Shown: positions 6,594 to 16,352 of the stretch, piece after piece
Layout: each line of letters opens with the position of its first letter
Numbering within the stretch: position 1 is the stretch's first letter
Assembly: GCA_943787375.1 (NCBI GenBank)
Contig: CALSME010000002.1
Coordinates: 124,001-188,000 of the forward strand
DNA from: an uncultured Polaribacter sp.
GTDB lineage: Bacteria > Bacteroidota > Bacteroidia > Flavobacteriales > Flavobacteriaceae
DNA: 64,000 bases
Direction of reading: 5' to 3'
The notes under the pieces: generated by a model
What the model was told of the DNA's origin: nothing
What the model saw: only the letters and a program-made list of their open reading frames with translations
Databases searched by the model: none
Translations under genes and position numbers: made by a program

Positions 6594-9302
6594 ATGAAAA
6601 ATTTAAAAAATGTATTGTTTCTCGTAATGTTTTTTGCAACTGCAATGATCATTGGACAAACTAAAGTTTCAGGAACAATTGTAGACGAAAACAACCAACC
6701 CCTACCCGGGACAAGTATTCTCGAAAAAGGGACAACTAACGGAACCGAAACAGATTTTGACGGAAAATTTATATTGAACGCTCAATCAAATTCAGGAATT
6801 TTAGTAATTTCTTACATCGGGTACAAATCGATGGAAGTTTCTTTTTCGCCATCTAAAACAGACATAGGTTTGGTCCAGCTATTTGATGATACAAATGCGT
6901 TGGATGAAATAATCATAAAAGGTATTGTAGATGTTGCAAAAAATAGAGAAACACCTGTAGCAGTTTCAACGATTAAAGCTGCAGAAATAGAAGATAAATT
7001 AGGTTCTCAAGAGTTTCCAGAAATTCTAAATAATACACCATCCGTTTATGCGACTAAATCAGGAGGAGGTTTTGGAGATGCTCGCATTGAAATTAGAGGT
7101 TTCTCTCAAGAAAACATTGCTGTATTGATTAATGGTGTTCCTGTAAATGATATGGAAAACAGTCGTGTTTACTGGTCTAATTGGGCTGGTTTGTCAGATG
7201 TAACAACTGCAATTCAAGTACAAAGAGGTTTAGGTTCTTCTAAGCTTGCAATTTCATCAGTTGGTGGTACAATAAATATTCTAACCAAAACTACAGATAA
7301 GCAAGAAGGTGGATCCTTTATTTCTTCTATTGGAAATGACGGCTTTCTAAAAACAGTAGCTTCTTATTCAACAGGTAAAAAAGAAAACGGTTTTGCTGCT
7401 TCATTCTTATTAAGTAGAACTACAGGGGGTGGATATGTAACAGGTACCGAATTTGAAGGATATAATTACTTTATTGGATTAGGATAGGAGTTCAATGAAA
7501 ATCATGACCTTCAATTTATGTTGACTGGAGCTCCACAAGCACATAATCAAAGAACGACCAGTTTTTACAATATGGCTACTTTGGGTAATTATTTACAATA
7601 TGGAGAGAAATACAACTACAATCATGGATACTTAAACGGGAAGGAATATAACTGGAGACGAAATTTTTATCATAAGCCAATCACTTCTGTAAACTGGAAT
7701 TGGGACATTAACGAAACCTCATCATTATCAACGTCCGCTTATATTTCTTTTGGGCGTGGAGGTGGAACTGGAGATATAGGAAGATTGCCGGGATATAAGT
7801 TTGCCTCAAGTTCCATCTATAGAAATCCTGTTAATGGTCTAGTAATGTGGGATGATATTGTAAAATACAATCAAGGAGAGACAGTTACATTTTCAGATGG
7901 AAATCAATATACCAGACCAAATGATGGCGGAATAAATGACGCCAAAGATAACGGATTAACTAGAAGAGCTTCTATTAACTCTCACAATTGGTTTGGGTTA
8001 TTATCTAATTATAGTTTAGAATTAAATCAAAATTTAACCTTAGATTTTGGGATTGATCTCCGATCTTATACAGGAATTCACTACCGAAGAATAGATGATC
8101 TTTTAGGCGCAAACGGTTACATCGATAGTGACAATATTAATAATCCTTCCAACCAGTTAACAGCAACTTATGGATCTGATTTAAGTGATTTAATAAACGT
8201 TTTTAAAAGCACAAATGAGGAAGAAAAAATTGATTATCACAATGATGGGAAAGTACGTTGGTTTGGAGCTTTTACTCAATTAGAATATAAAAATGATAAT
8301 ATTTCTGGATTTATCCAAGGAGGACTTTCGCAACAAGGGTTCAAAAGGATAGACTATTTTAATTACCTAAACTCTGACCCATTACAAGAAACCGATTGGC
8401 AAAATATTATGGGAGGAAATATAAAGGGGGGATTAAATTGGAATATTAATGACGAACAAAATATTTTTGCGAATGCTGGCTACTATTCTAAACAACCTTT
8501 CTTTGATGCAGTATTTTTGAATTATAAAAATGATATTAATCTTGATACAAAAAACGAAAAAATAATCGGTCTTGAATTAGGTTATGGCTTTCAAATAGAA
8601 AAATTTAAAGCGAATGTAAATTTATATCGAACAGAATGGCGAGATCGTTTTGTAAGAATTGGATATCAAAATAGTGCAGGAGATGAAGGGAATGCACAAT
8701 TAAATGGGATTAAACAAATCCATTTTGGCTCTGAATTTGAATTTACATTTGATGCAAGTGATAAAATTCGTTTTTTAGGAACTTTTTCCTATGGTAATTG
8801 GACATATAAAGGAAAAATTACAGGAAATGCTTTCGATGAAAATCAAAACCAAATTGGCATAGTAGATTTAGATGTAAATAATGTAAAGGTTGGTAATTCT
8901 CCTCAATCTATTAGTAGAATTGGAATTGAATTAAAACCATTTAACAGCTTTAAAATTGATTATAATCTAAGATATAACACTAGGCTGTACTCCGCTTTAG
9001 TAATCGGTGATGATCTAGATGGTAGTGATGCGACAAGCCTGAACCCCGCAATTAAACTTCCAGGGTATTCAGTATCTGACTTGGGTGTTTCATATAGATG
9101 GCTCTTAAATAAAGATCGAAAAAATTCTTTGAAATTAAGAATAAACCTAAATAACGTATTCGATAAAAAATATATAGCTGAATCTGCTACAAATTACGCT
9201 GTAAGACCTGGTGAAAAAACCTATAAAGGTATTAGTACCGGAAATAAAGTGTTTTTCGGTTTTGGAAGAACTTGGAATGCTTCTGTAAAATATAGTTTCT
9301 AA
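6594..9302 (+). pseudogene. TonB-dependent receptor 1, interrupted by one in-frame TAG
   Basis: The reading frame spans 902 sense positions plus the final stop but contains a TAG at 7485-7487 (codon 298). Both sides are in the same frame, and the sequence after the stop (EFNENHDLQFMLTGAPQ) continues the alignment with receptors 2 and 3. Receptor 3 has Lys at that position (SKEINENH). The part before the stop encodes a signal peptide, a carboxypeptidase-regulatory-like domain (about residues 23-95), a TonB-box-like DEIIIKG and the plug. The part after encodes the barrel, ending in a terminal Phe (SVKYSF). The lesion removes the barrel; restart at the ATG at 7518 would lack signal peptide and plug. 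A sequencing error, or readthrough, cannot be excluded. Confidence 0.85.
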
Positions 9303-9607: not shown

Positions 9608-12211
9608 ATGAAAATAATTAAAAACTTATTATTTGTAGCTTTATTCTTTATGGCAGCCACTGTCATGGGGCAAACCAAGGTTACTGGAACGGTGGTCGAT
9701 GAAAATAACCAACCCCTTCCTGGATCTAGTGTTCTTGAAAAAGGGACAACCAACGGAACAGAATCTGATTTTGATGGCCAATTTACATTGAACGCACAAT
9801 CGAATTCAGGTGTTTTAGTAATTTCTTATATCGGTTACAAATCGATGGAGATTTCTTTTTCTGCTGCAAAAGCCAACGTTGGTGCTGTTCAATTAGTTGA
9901 AGACGCAGATGCATTAGGTGAAGTAGTTATTATTGGTAAAGGAGTTATTGATTTAGCAGGGGGTAGAAAAACACCCGTAGCGGTTTCAACAATTAAAGCT
10001 GCCGAAATTCAAAGAAAAATTGGAACACAAGATGTTACCATGACATTGGTAAATACGCCTTCTGTATATGTTGCAGGACAAGGTGGTGGTTTCGGTGATA
10101 CTCGTATTTCTGTAAGAGGATTCGATCAAACAAACACTTCTTACCTATTAAACGGACAACCCATTAATGGAATGGAAGATGGCAAAATGTACTGGTCTAA
10201 CTGGTCTGGAATTAGCGACATTGCAAGTGCAGTTCAAATTCAGAGAGGTTTAGGAGCATCTAAATTGGCCATTTCTTCAGTTGGAGGTACCACCAACTTT
10301 GTAACAAAAACAACAGATAAAAAACCAGGAGGTTACTTTTCTACAGCTTTGGCAAATGATGCCTACTTTAAATCTACTATGTTTTACAACACAGGTCAGA
10401 ATGAAAGTGGTTTTGCAACCTCTGTAATGTTTTCTCACTGGCAAGGTGATGGATACAACGAAGGAAACAAAGGACAAGGACAAACGTACTTTGTGTCTTT
10501 TGGATACAACCCAAATGAAAAACACAACTTTAACTTCTTAATTACTGGAGCGCCACAATGGCACGACCAAAACTATTCTAAAAGTATTTCTTCTTACCTA
10601 GAATACGGTAGAAGATACAACAACAACTGGGGTACTTACCAAGGTGAATACAAAACAGAACGAAGAAATTTCTATCACAAACCCGTAATGAATATTAACT
10701 GGGATTATGCGATTAGCGATGATTCGAACCTTTCTACAGTACTTTATGCTTCATGGGGACGTGGAGGTGGAACTGGAAACAGAGGAAACAGAGAAAGAAC
10801 AAATACTGGGTATGTAGATTATGATGCAATTTACGCAAACAATGCGTCTGCTGTTGACGGAAACTTCGGAAACGGAGCCTACATTACAAGATCTTCTATG
10901 AACAACCATAGCTGGTATGGAATGGTTTCTAACTTTGAAAAGCAACTGAATGACAATTTAGTTTGGAACGTTGGAGCCGATTTAAGAACCTACTACGGAA
11001 CTCACTTTAGACAAGTAAAAGATTTACACGGATTGTCTTCTTGGACAGAGGACAGAAGATTAAAAGATGCAACGCACAATCGAGTTGGAGATGTAGTTTC
11101 TGTAACCGCAAATACTGCATTTAGCGCAAACCCTTGGGCAACCTTCTTTAATTCTGCAAACGAAAACGAAAGAATTGATTATGACAGTAGTGAAAGAATT
11201 TCTTATGCTGGAATGTTTACGCAACTAGAATATGCTACTGATAAACTATCAGCATTCGTACAAGGTTCATTGTCTCAGCAAAATCACCAAAGATTTGATA
11301 GATATGATTACGATGCAAATTCTCAAGATTCCGAAAAAGTAAGTAATGTTGGTTATAACGTGAAAGCTGGAGGTAGTATTATTGTAGATGAAAGTAATAA
11401 AGTGTATGCGAATGCAGGTGTTTATTCACGTCAACCATTTCACGATGCCATCTTTAATACCTATGATAACAGAGTAAGTCCTTTCACTCAAAATGAAGAT
11501 ATTTTAGGATTGGAATTAGGATACTCTTATGCTAAAAACAACTTTAGTGCAAATGTAAATTTATACAGAACCTCTTGGAAAAACAGAGTGGTAAGTTCTT
11601 CAAGAGTTGTAGACGGAGTTGTTGAAAATACGTTGAACTTTGGTGCGGAGCAATTGCACCAAGGAATCGAGATTGACTTTAGAACAAAGATGCTAAATGA
11701 CAAACTAACCTTTAAAGGATTTACTTCTATTGGAGATTGGGAATATGTTGGAAGTACTGTTCGAAGAGTAGTCGATGAGGATCAAGTAGTTTTATCTGAA
11801 TCAAACAATGATGTAGATGGTGGTAAAGTTGGAGATGCAGCTCAATTCACTTTAGGATTTGGTTTAGACTATGCAATTACAGACAACTTATCTATGGATT
11901 TTGACTGGAGATTGTATGATGGTCTATACGCAAACGTAGGAGCAGTAAAAAATAACTTAGAATTGCCTACTTATGACATTGCAGATTTAGGGATTTCTTA
12001 CCGTCTTTTTATTGGAGAAAACAAAGACAAGAATTTAGATTTCAGATTGAATGTAAACAACTTGTTCTATGAGGTGTACTTGACGGACCTTAGAGACAAT
12101 GATGAGGCATCTACAATCGCTTCAGAAAACTGGAAAGGGATTAACAAATCTAACCGAGGAATGTTTGGTTGGGGAAGAACTTGGAATGCTTCTGTGAAAT
12201 ACAGCTTCTAA
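9608..12211 (+). CDS. TonB-dependent receptor 2
   Basis: An intact 867-residue outer membrane receptor. In order it has a signal peptide ending at TVMGQ, a carboxypeptidase-regulatory-like domain (about 23-95), a TonB-box-like GEVVIIG near 112, a plug with RGFDQTN and GGGFGDTR segments, and a beta-barrel ending in SVKYSF with terminal Phe. Such receptors import ligands across the outer membrane using TonB energy. There is no SusD-type partner beside it, so a SusCD glycan system is not supported, and the ligand is unknown. Its N-terminal 100 residues are closest to receptor 1, but its plug differs more from receptors 1 and 3 than those two do from each other. Confidence 0.92.
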   Translation: MKIIKNLLFVALFFMAATVMGQTKVTGTVVDENNQPLPGSSVLEKGTTNGTESDFDGQFTLNAQSNSGVLVISYIGYKSMEISFSAAKANVGAVQLVEDADALGEVVIIGKGVIDLAGGRKTPVAVSTIKAAEIQRKIGTQDVTMTLVNTPSVYVAGQGGGFGDTRISVRGFDQTNTSYLLNGQPINGMEDGKMYWSNWSGISDIASAVQIQRGLGASKLAISSVGGTTNFVTKTTDKKPGGYFSTALANDAYFKSTMFYNTGQNESGFATSVMFSHWQGDGYNEGNKGQGQTYFVSFGYNPNEKHNFNFLITGAPQWHDQNYSKSISSYLEYGRRYNNNWGTYQGEYKTERRNFYHKPVMNINWDYAISDDSNLSTVLYASWGRGGGTGNRGNRERTNTGYVDYDAIYANNASAVDGNFGNGAYITRSSMNNHSWYGMVSNFEKQLNDNLVWNVGADLRTYYGTHFRQVKDLHGLSSWTEDRRLKDATHNRVGDVVSVTANTAFSANPWATFFNSANENERIDYDSSERISYAGMFTQLEYATDKLSAFVQGSLSQQNHQRFDRYDYDANSQDSEKVSNVGYNVKAGGSIIVDESNKVYANAGVYSRQPFHDAIFNTYDNRVSPFTQNEDILGLELGYSYAKNNFSANVNLYRTSWKNRVVSSSRVVDGVVENTLNFGAEQLHQGIEIDFRTKMLNDKLTFKGFTSIGDWEYVGSTVRRVVDEDQVVLSESNNDVDGGKVGDAAQFTLGFGLDYAITDNLSMDFDWRLYDGLYANVGAVKNNLELPTYDIADLGISYRLFIGENKDKNLDFRLNVNNLFYEVYLTDLRDNDEASTIASENWKGINKSNRGMFGWGRTWNASVKYSF

Positions 12212-12231: not shown

Positions 12232-12259
12232 AAAACCACCTCAATGAGGTGGTTTTTTT
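12232..12259 (+). terminator. Intrinsic terminator after TonB receptor 2
   Basis: Eleven-base arms (AAAACCACCTC and complement) with an AAT loop are followed by a run of T. It lies 20 bases after the receptor stop and shares its stem core with the terminators at 9324 and 16324. Confidence 0.85.
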
Positions 12260-12678: not shown

Positions 12679-15222
12679 ATGAAAAATTTTAAAAACTTAT
12701 TATTTGTAGCATTGATGTTAGTATCAACTACTGTATTAGGACAAACTAAAATTTCAGGAACGGTTGTAGACGAAAGCAATCAATCATTGCCTGGAGCAAG
12801 TGTTCTTGAAAAAGGAACCATGAATGGAACGGAAACAGATTTTGACGGAAAATTCTCGTTAAACACCACCTCTAATTCAGGGGTATTGGTTGTTTCTTTT
12901 ATTGGATACAAGACCGTTGAAATTTCTTTTTCTTCAACAAAATCTAATTTGGGTGCTATCCAATTAGAAGAAGGAGGAAGTACATTAGATGAAATTATCA
13001 TCACATCTACATCATTTGCAATTGATAGAAAAACCCCAGTAGCGGTTTCTACAATTAAAGCAGCTGATATTGAAAGAAAATTAGGAACTCAGGAATTTCC
13101 AGAGGTTTTAAAGTCTACACCTGGAGTGTATGCTACAAAATCTGGTGGTGGTTTTGGAGATGGTAGAATTAACTTACGTGGATTCAATTCTGAAAACGTA
13201 GCCGTAATGATTAACGGTGTTCCCGTAAATGATATGGAAAATGGTAGAGTATACTGGTCTAACTGGGCTGGATTGTCGGATGTAACATCTGCAATGCAAG
13301 TTCAGAGAGGTTTAGGTGCTGCGAAAGTAGCGGTTCCTTCTATTGGAGGTACGATTAATATCTTATCAAAAACTTCTGACGTAAATAAAGGTGGAAACGT
13401 TGTTGCTTCAACAGGTAACAATGGATACCAAAAATACGGCTTTACATTATCTACTGGATTAATGGAAAATGGATTGGCTGCTACTGTATCTTTTGCTAAA
13501 ATATCTGGTGAAGGTTATATTGAAGGAACACAATTTGAAGGATCTAACTACTTTGTTAACTTCTCTAAAGAAATCAATGAAAATCACAAGATTTCTTTTA
13601 CAAGTTTTGGAGCGCCACAAAGACACGGACAAAGACAAAACATGAGTACCGTTTCTACCTATAGAAATGCAGAAGCTGGGAATCAATTTAATCCAGATTG
13701 GGGTTATAAAGATGGTCAAGTAACACATATTGAAGATAACTTTTACCACAAATCTCAAACGTCATTAAACCACTATTGGACCATTAATGATAACACTTCT
13801 TTATCTACTGCTGCATACGTATCTTACGGTAGTGGTGGTGGTGGTGGAACTGCTGGAACTAACAGAGATTTATTTGGTGTTAGACTTGGTGGTGCAGACC
13901 AACCTGTAGATTTAGACAACATTGTTGAAATCAACAGAGCAAACGGAGCTTTAGGTTCTGAAGCAATCTTAAGAGCCTCTAGAAATGACCACGAATGGTA
14001 CGGGTTATTATCTACCTTCAAAACAGACTTAACGGATGAACTTACTTTTATCGGTGGATTGGACGTAAGAACATACACAGGAAAGCACTTTAGAGAAGTA
14101 ACAGACTTATTAGGAGGTGATTATTACTTTGACAACGAGAATGTGAACAATCCAAATGCAGCTTTAGTAGTTGGTGACAAAATGGGCTACAACAACGACG
14201 GTGAAGTTGGTTGGTTAGGTTTCTTTGGTCAATTAGAATATGGAACAGAAAACTTTGATGCATTTGTATCTTCATCTCTTCAAAAAACTTCTTACCAAAG
14301 AATTGAATACTTTTTATATGACTTAAGCACAGAAGCTGGAAAAGATTTAGCAACTTCTGAGAAAATCAAATTGGATGGATATAGTATTAAAGGAGGTGCA
14401 AACTACCGTTTAGACGATGTTCAAAATGTTTTTGCAAACATTGGTTATTTCGAAAGACCAGCTGCATTCAATGCTGTTTTTAACGGATACAACAACACGA
14501 AAATCAACAGAGATGCTGAAAACGAAAAAGTATTCAGTTTAGAATTAGGGTATGGTGTTAGAGCTGAAAAATTTGCAGCCAATGTAAACGTATACAGAAC
14601 ACAGTGGAATGACAGAACTTTTACAAGAAGCGTAAGAGCTACTGAGCCTGGTGCTGAAGACTATACCGCAAACCTTTTAGGCGTAAACGCTTTACACCAA
14701 GGAGTTGAGTTTGATTTCACCTACAAGCCTTCTAACAACCTTAACTTTTCAGGGATGGTATCTTTAGGAGACTGGAAATGGGACAACAACTTAGAAGATG
14801 TACCTGTATTCAATGAAAACCAAGAAGAAGTAACAACTCTTTCTTTACCTATTAAAGGATTGAAAGTTTCTAACGCAGCACAAACAACTGCTGCATTAGG
14901 GATGTTATACAAATTCTGGGACAGAACAAGTATTACGGTAGATTACAACTACTTTGCAAACTTATATGCTCGTATCGATGTTTTAAACTATGCAAACGCA
15001 ACAGAAACACCAACCGATTCTTATAAAGTACCAAGTTACGGTACTGTAGATGCAAGTTTACGTCACAGTTTTAACTTTGGAACATTTGACACGACACTTA
15101 CTGCTCGTGTAAACAACTTATTGGATACAGAATATATCGCAGATGCTATTGACGCTTCAGATCCATTAGTATTTTTTGGTTTCGGTAGAACATTCAGTTT
15201 AAGTGCAAAAATTAAATTTTAA
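12679..15222 (+). CDS. TonB-dependent receptor 3
   Basis: An intact 847-residue receptor with the layout of its neighbours: signal peptide ending at TVLGQ, regulatory-like domain (about 23-95), TonB-box-like DEIIITS near 110, plug containing ATKSGGGFGDGR and NGVPVNDMENGR, and a barrel. Its plug is closest to receptor 1. The C-terminus ends FGRTFSLSAKIKF, unlike the SVKYSF of the other two. The repeat lipoprotein gene starts 12 bases later with no terminator between, so the two are almost certainly co-transcribed and may form a surface complex. The substrate is unknown. Confidence 0.92.
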   Translation: MKNFKNLLFVALMLVSTTVLGQTKISGTVVDESNQSLPGASVLEKGTMNGTETDFDGKFSLNTTSNSGVLVVSFIGYKTVEISFSSTKSNLGAIQLEEGGSTLDEIIITSTSFAIDRKTPVAVSTIKAADIERKLGTQEFPEVLKSTPGVYATKSGGGFGDGRINLRGFNSENVAVMINGVPVNDMENGRVYWSNWAGLSDVTSAMQVQRGLGAAKVAVPSIGGTINILSKTSDVNKGGNVVASTGNNGYQKYGFTLSTGLMENGLAATVSFAKISGEGYIEGTQFEGSNYFVNFSKEINENHKISFTSFGAPQRHGQRQNMSTVSTYRNAEAGNQFNPDWGYKDGQVTHIEDNFYHKSQTSLNHYWTINDNTSLSTAAYVSYGSGGGGGTAGTNRDLFGVRLGGADQPVDLDNIVEINRANGALGSEAILRASRNDHEWYGLLSTFKTDLTDELTFIGGLDVRTYTGKHFREVTDLLGGDYYFDNENVNNPNAALVVGDKMGYNNDGEVGWLGFFGQLEYGTENFDAFVSSSLQKTSYQRIEYFLYDLSTEAGKDLATSEKIKLDGYSIKGGANYRLDDVQNVFANIGYFERPAAFNAVFNGYNNTKINRDAENEKVFSLELGYGVRAEKFAANVNVYRTQWNDRTFTRSVRATEPGAEDYTANLLGVNALHQGVEFDFTYKPSNNLNFSGMVSLGDWKWDNNLEDVPVFNENQEEVTTLSLPIKGLKVSNAAQTTAALGMLYKFWDRTSITVDYNYFANLYARIDVLNYANATETPTDSYKVPSYGTVDASLRHSFNFGTFDTTLTARVNNLLDTEYIADAIDASDPLVFFGFGRTFSLSAKIKF

Positions 15223-15234
15223 AAAATAACAATC

Positions 15235-16299
15235 ATGAAAAAAATATTTTATTCATTCGCAATCCTTTCTTTGGTGCTTACATCTTGTAACCCTATGGAA
15301 GACATTTATAAAGAAGTAGATGCTCAAGAAACTATTATTTCTGGTGAAGCAAAATTTACTTTAACTGACGGAGACTATGATGATTTAGGTTTAAACTACG
15401 GTAACTTTAGCTCTACTGACGACGCTAAAGAAATGCTTCCTGAGTTTTTATCTGACAAATTTCCAGCATGGGGTAAAGAATCATTAGCTGAAGTAACTTT
15501 TAAGTTATACCAACCAGCATATGACGAAAGAAGTTTAGATGTATATACAGTAACTTCTCAAGACTATGCAGATGGTGGACATACTTATGGAAACTTTAGT
15601 CGTGATTCTCACATTATTGACTTCTTAAACACAAAGTACACTGCACCAGCAAACAGATTGTTGGTTTCATTAACCTATAAGTACTATTCAGGAAGTGTAT
15701 CTACCTTAAACAATGGTTTCTTATTTGTAAATGGAGAATGGCAAATGGCTACTGGTTTCACAGCAGATGAGTATGAAACAATGGGCGAAGGATACTCGAA
15801 CTTCTCTAATGAAGACGAAGCTTTGACTAAAATACCAGTATTTTTACTTGAAAAATTTAGATTTTCTGGAAAAATGGCTGGAGATATTGAGCCAATCATG
15901 TATAAATTATATGTGAGTGGATCTGTGTTAAGCTATATTGCTAACTTTATCTATGATGGAGCAGCTTGGTCTGTTTACAACAATGTTGTAAATGAAACCA
16001 TTAAATTTGGACATGATGGTATGAACTGGGTTCCAGACAACACCATTAAGTACACATTAACTGCTGCTGATTATGAATTTGTTGGTAATGGGAATTACGG
16101 AAACTTTGATGTAAGAGCTGGAAAAGACGAAGAGTCTGTTGAAGCGCGTTTGGCAAAAATCAACACGATCTTGTTAAACAACTTCCCTAGTGATGCAGAA
16201 GGTCAAAAATACTTGGTTTCTTATAACATTTATAATGGAGCTGCAGGTGTATGGACAATGGCAGTTATCAAGTCTGGATCAGCATATATTTTACAATAG
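15235..16299 (+). CDS. Lipoprotein with four YGNF-type repeats, partner of TonB receptor 3
   Basis: A 354-residue lipoprotein (leader followed by LTSC, Cys18) of no family I recognise. It contains four degenerate copies of one unit, starting near residues 41, 105, 174 and 274. Each opens with T-x2-(D/E)-Y, continues to Y-(G/S)-N-F, then an acidic helix-like stretch with a hydrophobic (I/L)-x-(D/N)-F/K-F-like end, and closes with a Y-K-(L/Y)-Y type strand. Short W-containing beta segments (NGEWQ, DGAAWSVY, DGMNWVP) separate the units. It is neither SusD-like nor TPR-like by eye. Twelve bases separate it from receptor 3, so a surface ligand-binding or accessory role for that receptor is a reasonable inference. 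Confidence 0.85.
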   Translation: MKKIFYSFAILSLVLTSCNPMEDIYKEVDAQETIISGEAKFTLTDGDYDDLGLNYGNFSSTDDAKEMLPEFLSDKFPAWGKESLAEVTFKLYQPAYDERSLDVYTVTSQDYADGGHTYGNFSRDSHIIDFLNTKYTAPANRLLVSLTYKYYSGSVSTLNNGFLFVNGEWQMATGFTADEYETMGEGYSNFSNEDEALTKIPVFLLEKFRFSGKMAGDIEPIMYKLYVSGSVLSYIANFIYDGAAWSVYNNVVNETIKFGHDGMNWVPDNTIKYTLTAADYEFVGNGNYGNFDVRAGKDEESVEARLAKINTILLNNFPSDAEGQKYLVSYNIYNGAAGVWTMAVIKSGSAYILQ

Positions 16300-16323: not shown

Positions 16324-16352
16324 AAAACCACCTCCTATGAGGTGGTTTTTTT
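16324..16352 (+). terminator. Intrinsic terminator after the repeat lipoprotein gene
   Basis: Arms AAAACCACCTC and its complement flank a CTAT loop, followed by a T run. It is the third copy of nearly the same stem in the receptor array and marks the end of the receptor 3-lipoprotein transcript. Confidence 0.85.

What the first reader, a model, noticed from the sequence alone, without database searches (positions are those of the whole stretch)
12679..16299. TonB receptor paired with a four-repeat YGNF lipoprotein: candidate undescribed uptake unit
The lipoprotein is made of four diverged units with Y-G-N-F at their heart and is 12 bases from receptor 3, with no SusD. A repeat-built surface lipoprotein serving a non-SusC receptor could be a new ligand-capture design.
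Basis: partly seen in the sequence, partly recalled or inferred. Interest (0 to 1): 0.72.

Follow-up and report, generated by a model that had tools for sequence, protein, structure and literature searches.

The report
Repeat lipoprotein with its own receptor
Marine flavobacteria carry a TonB-type receptor gene that is followed, in every example where the neighbouring DNA could be read, by the gene for a predicted surface lipoprotein built of repeats whose middle part differs even between close relatives; the two likely work together to capture and import material, possibly fragments of DNA.

Summary
In detail: receptor 3 (12679-15222) is followed 12 bp later by a 354-aa lipoprotein of four diverged units, and terminator-like hairpins bracket both genes. 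The lipoprotein reaches no Pfam or NCBIfam cut-off and no PDB sequence. Of 64 genomes (of 299 searched in the family) that carry it, 63 have a receptor directly upstream; the other is cut at a contig end. It is also so in 80 of 80 named loci, which partly overlap these, and in three more loci with other neighbours, one in another family and one in another class. Twelve family genomes have a related receptor without the lipoprotein; those receptors form a separate clade. So the pair is fixed. The lipoprotein is a mosaic: tether and last unit stay alike, while the middle switches between four units, four units plus a choice-of-anchor-J domain, or five to six units (at least 19 changes on the receptor tree), even beside receptors 95% identical. 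A lipoprotein nuclease (Endonuclease I) sits beside it in about half the loci, and its stalk length follows the lipoprotein's architecture; the window's genome has none. My reading: a receptor-plus-lid uptake pair with a constant dock and exchangeable capture module, perhaps for nucleic-acid fragments. Pairing is shown; surface position, docking and ligand are inferred.

The parts
12232..12256 (+). terminator-like hairpin after receptor 2, upstream border of the unit
   Evidence: consensus scan, 11 pairs with T tail
12679..15222 (+). receptor 3, TonB-dependent receptor with CarbopepD_reg_2 and Plug domains, 847 aa
   Evidence: ORF; Pfam CarbopepD_reg_2 66 bits and Plug 60.3 bits, both over cut-off
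15235..16299 (+). repeat-built lipoprotein, 354 aa
   Evidence: ORF; no Pfam family at E<=1, NCBIfam only one hit far under cut-off, no PDB sequence at E<=10
15235..15288 (+). signal peptide and lipobox up to Cys18
   Evidence: sequence; Cys18 nearly invariant in alignment A1
15349..15513 (+). unit 1 (residues 39-93, YGNF at 55)
   Evidence: unit profile, shuffle test
15538..15696 (+). unit 2 (residues 102-154, YGNF at 118)
   Evidence: unit profile, shuffle test
15739..15921 (+). unit 3 (residues 169-229, YSNF at 187)
   Evidence: unit profile, shuffle test
15991..16044 (+). W-motif just before unit 4 (residues 253-270, ...FGHDGxxWVPDNT...), the best conserved stretch
   Evidence: mean pairwise identity 0.738 over 75 short forms; other regions 0.40-0.53
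16039..16239 (+). unit 4 (residues 269-335, YGNF at 288), conserved last unit
   Evidence: unit profile; DNA identity to L194 and L198 returns to 88-89% here
16324..16349 (+). terminator-like hairpin, downstream border of the unit
   Evidence: consensus scan, 11 pairs with T tail

Best explanation
Receptor 3 and the lipoprotein form a fixed two-gene pair in which the lipoprotein is predicted to sit on the cell surface, likely docks on the receptor through its conserved ends, and would hold its ligand, probably nucleic-acid fragments, with its exchangeable middle before TonB-driven import. Shown: the pair is adjacent wherever flanking DNA was held; the receptor belongs to one clade; tether, W-motif and last unit are the stable parts; the middle is replaced repeatedly; a lipoprotein Endonuclease I is the next gene in about half of the loci and its stalk length follows the lipoprotein's architecture. 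Inferred: surface position (acidic residues after the lipid-bearing Cys resemble the lipoprotein export signal), docking by the constant last unit (the receptor hardly changes when the middle does), a lid-like mechanism as in BtuBG or XusAB, and DNA or its pieces as cargo (nuclease next door; shared jelly-roll domain with a lipoprotein that Riemerella needs for natural transformation).
For: Adjacency: 63 of 64 family loci (the 64th is cut at a contig end and its receptor ends 67 bp before another contig's end) and 80 of 80 named loci, gaps 3-31 bp. Relocated pairs with other neighbours: L117 (other family), L119 (other class), L118, L064 and L082. Receptor tree: 67 paired rows and 16 unpaired rows are the two sides of one branch, SH-aLRT 100. 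Mosaic: window against L194 and L198, receptor 95% and neighbours 83-99% identical, lipoprotein 57% over 202 residues, DNA 38-66% in bins 15401-15851 and 88-89% from 16001; 85 locus pairs with receptors at least 78% identical but different architecture average 25% in the middle and 68% in the last unit, against 63% and 76% for 172 same-architecture pairs. At least 19 architecture changes on the receptor tree. Nuclease: Endonuclease I within two genes in 31 of 64 family loci against 0 of 12 loci of unpaired receptors (Fisher p 0.001, relatedness not controlled); L064, away from the usual neighbours, keeps receptor, lipoprotein and nuclease. Stalk: four-unit partners have two Big_9 domains in 15 of 16 family loci, five- to six-unit partners three in 5 of 7, choice-of-anchor-J partners none in 7 of 8. 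The choice-of-anchor-J insert matches NF038128 over cut-off in five of five long forms tested and the C-terminal part of the M949_1556 family in three. In Riemerella a DUF5689/choice-of-anchor-J protein and a receptor-like partner are needed for transformation (PMC8459023), and a tonB gene too (PMC8383284, abstract).
Against: No ligand, no expression and no contact were measured. The window's genome, 79% complete, has no Endonuclease I match, and 33 of 64 family loci and 40 of 75 named loci lack it within two genes. In the named set the link between architecture and nuclease presence is not significant (p 0.49; only two choice-of-anchor-J loci) and the three six-unit loci there have none. The distant loci L117, L118, L119, L181 and L197 show no Endonuclease I next door. 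The nuclease gap is usually 56-141 bp, so one transcript is not certain. The stalk rule rests on few independent events: three of the choice-of-anchor-J cases are one clade, one nuclease ORF is only 163 aa, and two lack the motif my script sought. The linked-chain model gave pTM 0.57 and no contact data. The receptor model resembles small-cargo receptors such as PqqU and FhuA. The DUF5689 pair lies near unpaired receptors too (L100, L105), so its closeness is old gene order, not proof.
Confidence: 0.5

Rival explanations
1. The pair is a lid-and-barrel importer like BtuBG or XusAB for an unrelated small cargo (metal chelate, vitamin, peptide, glycan piece), and the nuclease next door is an independent gene.
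For: The modelled receptor's best structural matches are small-cargo receptors (PqqU, Fiu, FhuA, FecA); half of the loci and the window's genome lack the nuclease; lipoprotein-assisted import of small molecules is known in Bacteroides (abstracts of PMC10404256 and PMC13142918).
Against: The nuclease is tied to paired receptors and not to the 12 unpaired loci, its stalk follows the lipoprotein form, and one relocated locus keeps all three genes. Such barrels all look alike to a fold search, so those matches say little about cargo.
Confidence: 0.33
2. The middle of the lipoprotein is swapped because phages or competitors use this surface protein as a handle; diversity reflects escape rather than ligand choice.
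For: Near-identical receptors carry unlike middles; surface receptors are common phage targets (general knowledge); solved structures exist of a phage lipoprotein on FhuA (listed).
Against: No PADLOC model matches the lipoprotein or nuclease; changes are whole-module swaps with a matching change in a nuclease stalk, which escape alone does not predict. It can be true together with the uptake role.
Confidence: 0.12
3. Adjacency is only inherited gene order with no functional link.
For: Most loci keep the same neighbours (pgi in 53 of 64 at position -2), so they are not independent.
Against: The pair stays together after moving, with a 3-31 bp gap in the named set (69 bp and about 120 bp in L117 and L119), and presence follows the receptor clade.
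Confidence: 0.03

Closest known systems
BtuB-BtuG and XusA-XusB (TonB receptor with surface lipoprotein lid, Bacteroides)
   Same: Non-SusC receptor gene paired with a surface lipoprotein gene; likely capture then hand-over (abstracts only).
   Different: This lipoprotein is built of repeated alpha-beta units with an exchangeable middle; no sequence match to any PDB chain at E<=10; cargo unknown.
RA0C_RS04915/RA0C_RS04920 of Riemerella anatipestifer (receptor-like protein with DUF5689/choice-of-anchor-J protein, both needed for natural transformation)
   Same: Receptor plus exported protein; long forms of our lipoprotein share the choice-of-anchor-J domain; a DUF5689 gene follows a second receptor a few genes away in 20 of 64 family loci.
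   Different: Our lipoprotein has no DUF5689 domain; the window's form lacks choice-of-anchor-J; the Riemerella sequences themselves were not held or compared; the like-looking pair in the window's genome is a separate locus.
SusC-SusD
   Same: Bacteroidota receptor with N-terminal carboxypeptidase-like domain and partner lipoprotein.
   Different: Receptor fails the SusC/RagA cut-off; lipoprotein is not SusD by Pfam or NCBIfam.
RagA-RagB alleles of Porphyromonas gingivalis
   Same: Alleles of a receptor-lipoprotein pair within one species (abstract in listing).
   Different: Here the middle of the lipoprotein changes architecture while the receptor stays about 95% identical.

Membership tests
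TonB-dependent receptor (receptor 3) | Plug domain | tested here: met
   PF07715 60.3 bits, cut-off 23.9
TonB-dependent receptor (receptor 3) | 22-strand barrel receptor fold | tested here: met
   No Pfam barrel hit for this protein, but the linked-chain model matches solved receptors, best E 8.9e-30, TM by target 0.78; strand number not counted
SusC/RagA (TIGR04056) | score over the model's cut-off | tested here: not met
   112 bits against 368, residues 24-185 only
SusD-like lipoprotein | SusD domain in the lipoprotein | tested here: not met
   no Pfam family at E<=1; NCBIfam only an unrelated hit under cut-off
choice-of-anchor-J (NF038128) | domain over cut-off 30 bits | tested here: not met
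   window form: no hit. Five of five long forms tested are over it, 43-55 bits
M949_1556 family lipoprotein (NF052645) | whole-length score over 475 bits | tested here: not met
   window form no hit; three long forms reach 37-62 bits on the C-terminal part only
BtuG / XusB lid | fold of the lipoprotein | tested here: inconclusive
   structure searches cannot exclude it
BtuG / XusB lid | stable complex with the receptor | not testable with these tools
   linked-chain model gives no contact data
surface-exported Bacteroidota lipoprotein | acidic export signal after the lipid-bearing Cys | tested here: inconclusive
   135 of 143 lipoproteins have two or more acidic residues within five residues that start two after the Cys; position differs slightly from the published signals (passages of PMC5080379)
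Endonuclease I (neighbour gene, not in the window) | PF04231 over cut-off | tested here: met
   three of three tested neighbours, 109-121 bits, cut-off 25

The most novel reading that the evidence does not exclude
The pair is an outer-membrane nucleic-acid importer with interchangeable capture heads: a constant docking unit holds the lipoprotein on its receptor, the swappable middle and the Big_9 stalk of a tethered Endonuclease I are matched in reach, so DNA is cut and handed over at the barrel mouth. It would be a second system beside the DUF5689 transformation pair in the same bacteria.
Probability: 0.28. Interest if true: 0.87.

Novelty: new variant of a known kind. Interest (0 to 1): 0.63.

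Why it matters
How Bacteroidota bring DNA and its pieces across the outer membrane is poorly known. If this pair imports nucleic-acid fragments, it gives a defined receptor, a capture protein and a matched nuclease to test, in bacteria common in the sea. Even if the cargo differs, a lipoprotein with a constant dock and exchangeable middle beside a nearly unchanged receptor is a natural set of swap experiments for how receptor lids choose their ligands.

Tried and rejected

Complex: one linked-chain prediction of receptor plus lipoprotein gave mean pLDDT 78.3, pTM 0.57 and no coordinates or error matrix that I could read, so nothing is claimed on docking from it.

Chance adjacency and gene order alone: rejected. 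Defence role: no PADLOC match. SusC-SusD: rejected by cut-offs. The DUF5689 pair as specific partner: weakened, because it also lies near unpaired receptors L100 and L105.

Single-unit profile: made and used on held sequences only, not against a public database. The phylum search used the whole-protein profile and scored only the first-look candidates, so its 8 of 395 is a lower bound. Papers: ten searches listed no paper on this lipoprotein; only open-licence PMC papers are held.

Caveats on counts: the family set (64 loci) and the named set (80 loci) share some genomes, so they are not added up. Architecture counts: 33 choice-of-anchor-J, 24 four-unit, 7 five- to six-unit; one of the 24 (L035) is a contig-broken fragment. 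Neighbour clusters were made by single linkage of BLAST hits. Trees used quick settings; the nuclease tree was poorly resolved. Locus pairs are not independent.
Full report
What is there. Receptor 3 (12679-15222, 847 aa) carries CarbopepD_reg_2 and Plug domains. Its stop is followed after 12 bp by the ATG of a 354-aa lipoprotein (15235-16299). Terminator-like hairpins lie at 12232-12256 and 16324-16349, so the two genes look like one short transcription unit (inferred). The lipoprotein has four units; five of six unit pairs score above all of 1000 shuffles and one is reached once. The core is YGNF three times and YSNF once. It has no Pfam family at E<=1, only one unrelated NCBIfam hit far under its cut-off, and no PDB sequence at E<=10. 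The genome holds one copy.

Who has it. A protein search found 898 relatives at E<=0.001, of which 120 were listed; those with names are mostly Polaribacter, with Lutibacter among the others. In the family, 64 of 299 genomes match at E<=1e-5. In a spread over the phylum, 8 of 395 match, two of them outside the family. A scan of named genomes gave 195 relatives, of which the best 80 were kept; they reach from Polaribacter to Flavilitoribacter and a Cytophagales genome.

The pair is fixed. In the family set, 63 of 64 loci have a receptor of 677-870 aa directly upstream on the same strand, 3-30 bp away, apart from one locus (L065) where my script took an early start codon and reports an overlap. 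The 64th (L035) begins at a contig end; its genome has a receptor that stops 67 bp before the end of another contig. In the named set it is 80 of 80, with gaps of 3-31 bp. In three further loci with other neighbours the pair is kept: L118, L117 (another family) and L119 (another class), with gaps of 12, 69 and about 120 bp. L064 and L082 are also moved. The receptor search found 76 of 299 genomes at E<=1e-160. The 12 extra genomes all have receptors that score higher with receptor 2 of the window than with receptor 3; none has the lipoprotein beside it, and 10 of the 12 lie next to the same pgi gene. In a tree of 83 receptors, 67 paired and 16 unpaired rows are the two sides of one branch with SH-aLRT 100. 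Receptor 2 of the window is on the unpaired side.

The lipoprotein is a mosaic. The unit profile and lengths give three architectures among 64 family loci: 24 with four units (one is a fragment), 33 with four units and an insert of roughly 190 residues between units 2 and 3, and 7 with five or six units. The insert is a choice-of-anchor-J domain, over NCBIfam's cut-off in five of five long forms tested. On the tree of 66 paired receptors the architecture changes at least 19 times. The closest case is the window's own group: L194 and L198 have receptors 95% identical to receptor 3 and neighbours 83-99% identical, but their lipoprotein has 532 aa with the insert and is 57% identical over 202 residues. 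At DNA level identity is 38-66% in the bins from 15401 to 15851 and returns to 88-89% from 16001, where the last unit begins. L120 and L121, equally close, keep the four-unit form. Over 85 locus pairs with receptors at least 78% identical and different architecture, mean identity is 66% for the N-terminus, 51% for unit 1, 25% for the middle and 68% for the last unit; for 172 pairs with the same architecture it is 72, 70, 63 and 76%. The stretch before unit 4, FGHDGxxWVPDNT, is the best conserved part (0.738 against 0.40-0.53 elsewhere, 75 sequences).

The nuclease. A lipoprotein Endonuclease I (PF04231, three of three tested over cut-off) is within two genes downstream in 31 of 64 family loci and is the next gene on the same strand in 32 of 75 named loci with a downstream gene held. 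None of the 12 unpaired loci has it (p 0.001 without control for relatedness). It is more frequent beside four-unit (16 of 23) and five- to six-unit forms (7 of 7) than beside choice-of-anchor-J forms (8 of 33) in the family set (p 4e-5), but in the named set this is not significant and the three six-unit loci there have none. The number of Big_9 domains in its stalk follows the lipoprotein: two in 15 of 16 with four units, three in 5 of 7 with five to six units, none in 7 of 8 with the insert (family set); in the named set two in 32 of 35 four-unit loci, the other three being on the opposite strand. The six-unit form needs seven changes for seven receptors, so several concordant changes look independent, though transfer of a joint lipoprotein-nuclease block is not excluded. 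The window's genome has no PF04231 match.

How it most likely works. Shown: fixed pairing, one receptor clade, constant ends and exchangeable middle, a nuclease whose stalk follows. Inferred: the lipoprotein is on the surface, since 135 of 143 have acidic residues soon after the Cys, similar to but not the same as published export signals (passages of PMC5080379). Inferred: it docks by its last unit, because the receptor barely changes when the middle does. Inferred: the middle binds the ligand, and the receptor imports it with TonB, as lids do in BtuBG and XusAB (abstracts and outlines). Inferred and least certain: the cargo is nucleic-acid fragments. Reasons are the nuclease and a link to Riemerella anatipestifer, where a DUF5689/choice-of-anchor-J protein and a receptor-like neighbour are essential for natural transformation (passages and Discussion of PMC8459023) and a tonBA mutant transforms less without loss of iron uptake (abstract of PMC8383284). 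Twenty of 64 family loci have a DUF5689 gene a few genes downstream, but so do two unpaired loci.

Against. No binding, expression or complex was measured; half of the loci lack the nuclease; the distant loci lack it next door; the linked-chain model is inconclusive; the receptor model looks like ordinary small-cargo receptors.

Odds. I put about 0.9 on a functional pair, about 0.75 on a lid-like capture role given the pair, and about 0.45-0.5 on nucleic-acid fragments as cargo. The confidence of 0.5 given for the best explanation is mainly for the pair with its capture role and this leading cargo; the cargo step is the weak one.

Noticed in passing
window 6594-9302: Receptor 1 is one reading frame broken by a single in-frame stop near 7485-7487 (ORFs 6594-7487 and 7518-9302); L120, L121 and L198 show receptor 2 directly after pgi in the gene lists, without such a gene.
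   Followed up: partly
window 9608-12211: Receptor 2 belongs to the unpaired receptor clade that sits alone beside pgi in other genomes.
   Followed up: yes
L201 3368-7857 (own genome, C2): A DUF5689 lipoprotein next to a 999-aa receptor ORF: the look-alike of the Riemerella transformation pair, far from the window's pair.
   Followed up: partly
L199 around 7001-8133: In Polaribacter filamentus the lipoprotein is split into ORFs of 100 and 253 aa.
   Followed up: no
L196 after 7001-8584: A 155-aa second lipoprotein-like ORF follows the 528-aa form.
   Followed up: no
L148: Record titled Rhodobacteraceae carries the flavobacterial gene order; the bin label is probably wrong.
   Followed up: no
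L184, L186, L187, L189, L190 (Psychroflexus) and L197: The pair lies beside other genes: clusters c50 and c51 in Psychroflexus, and a large receptor-like cluster (c49, about 1080 aa) in some of these loci.
   Followed up: no
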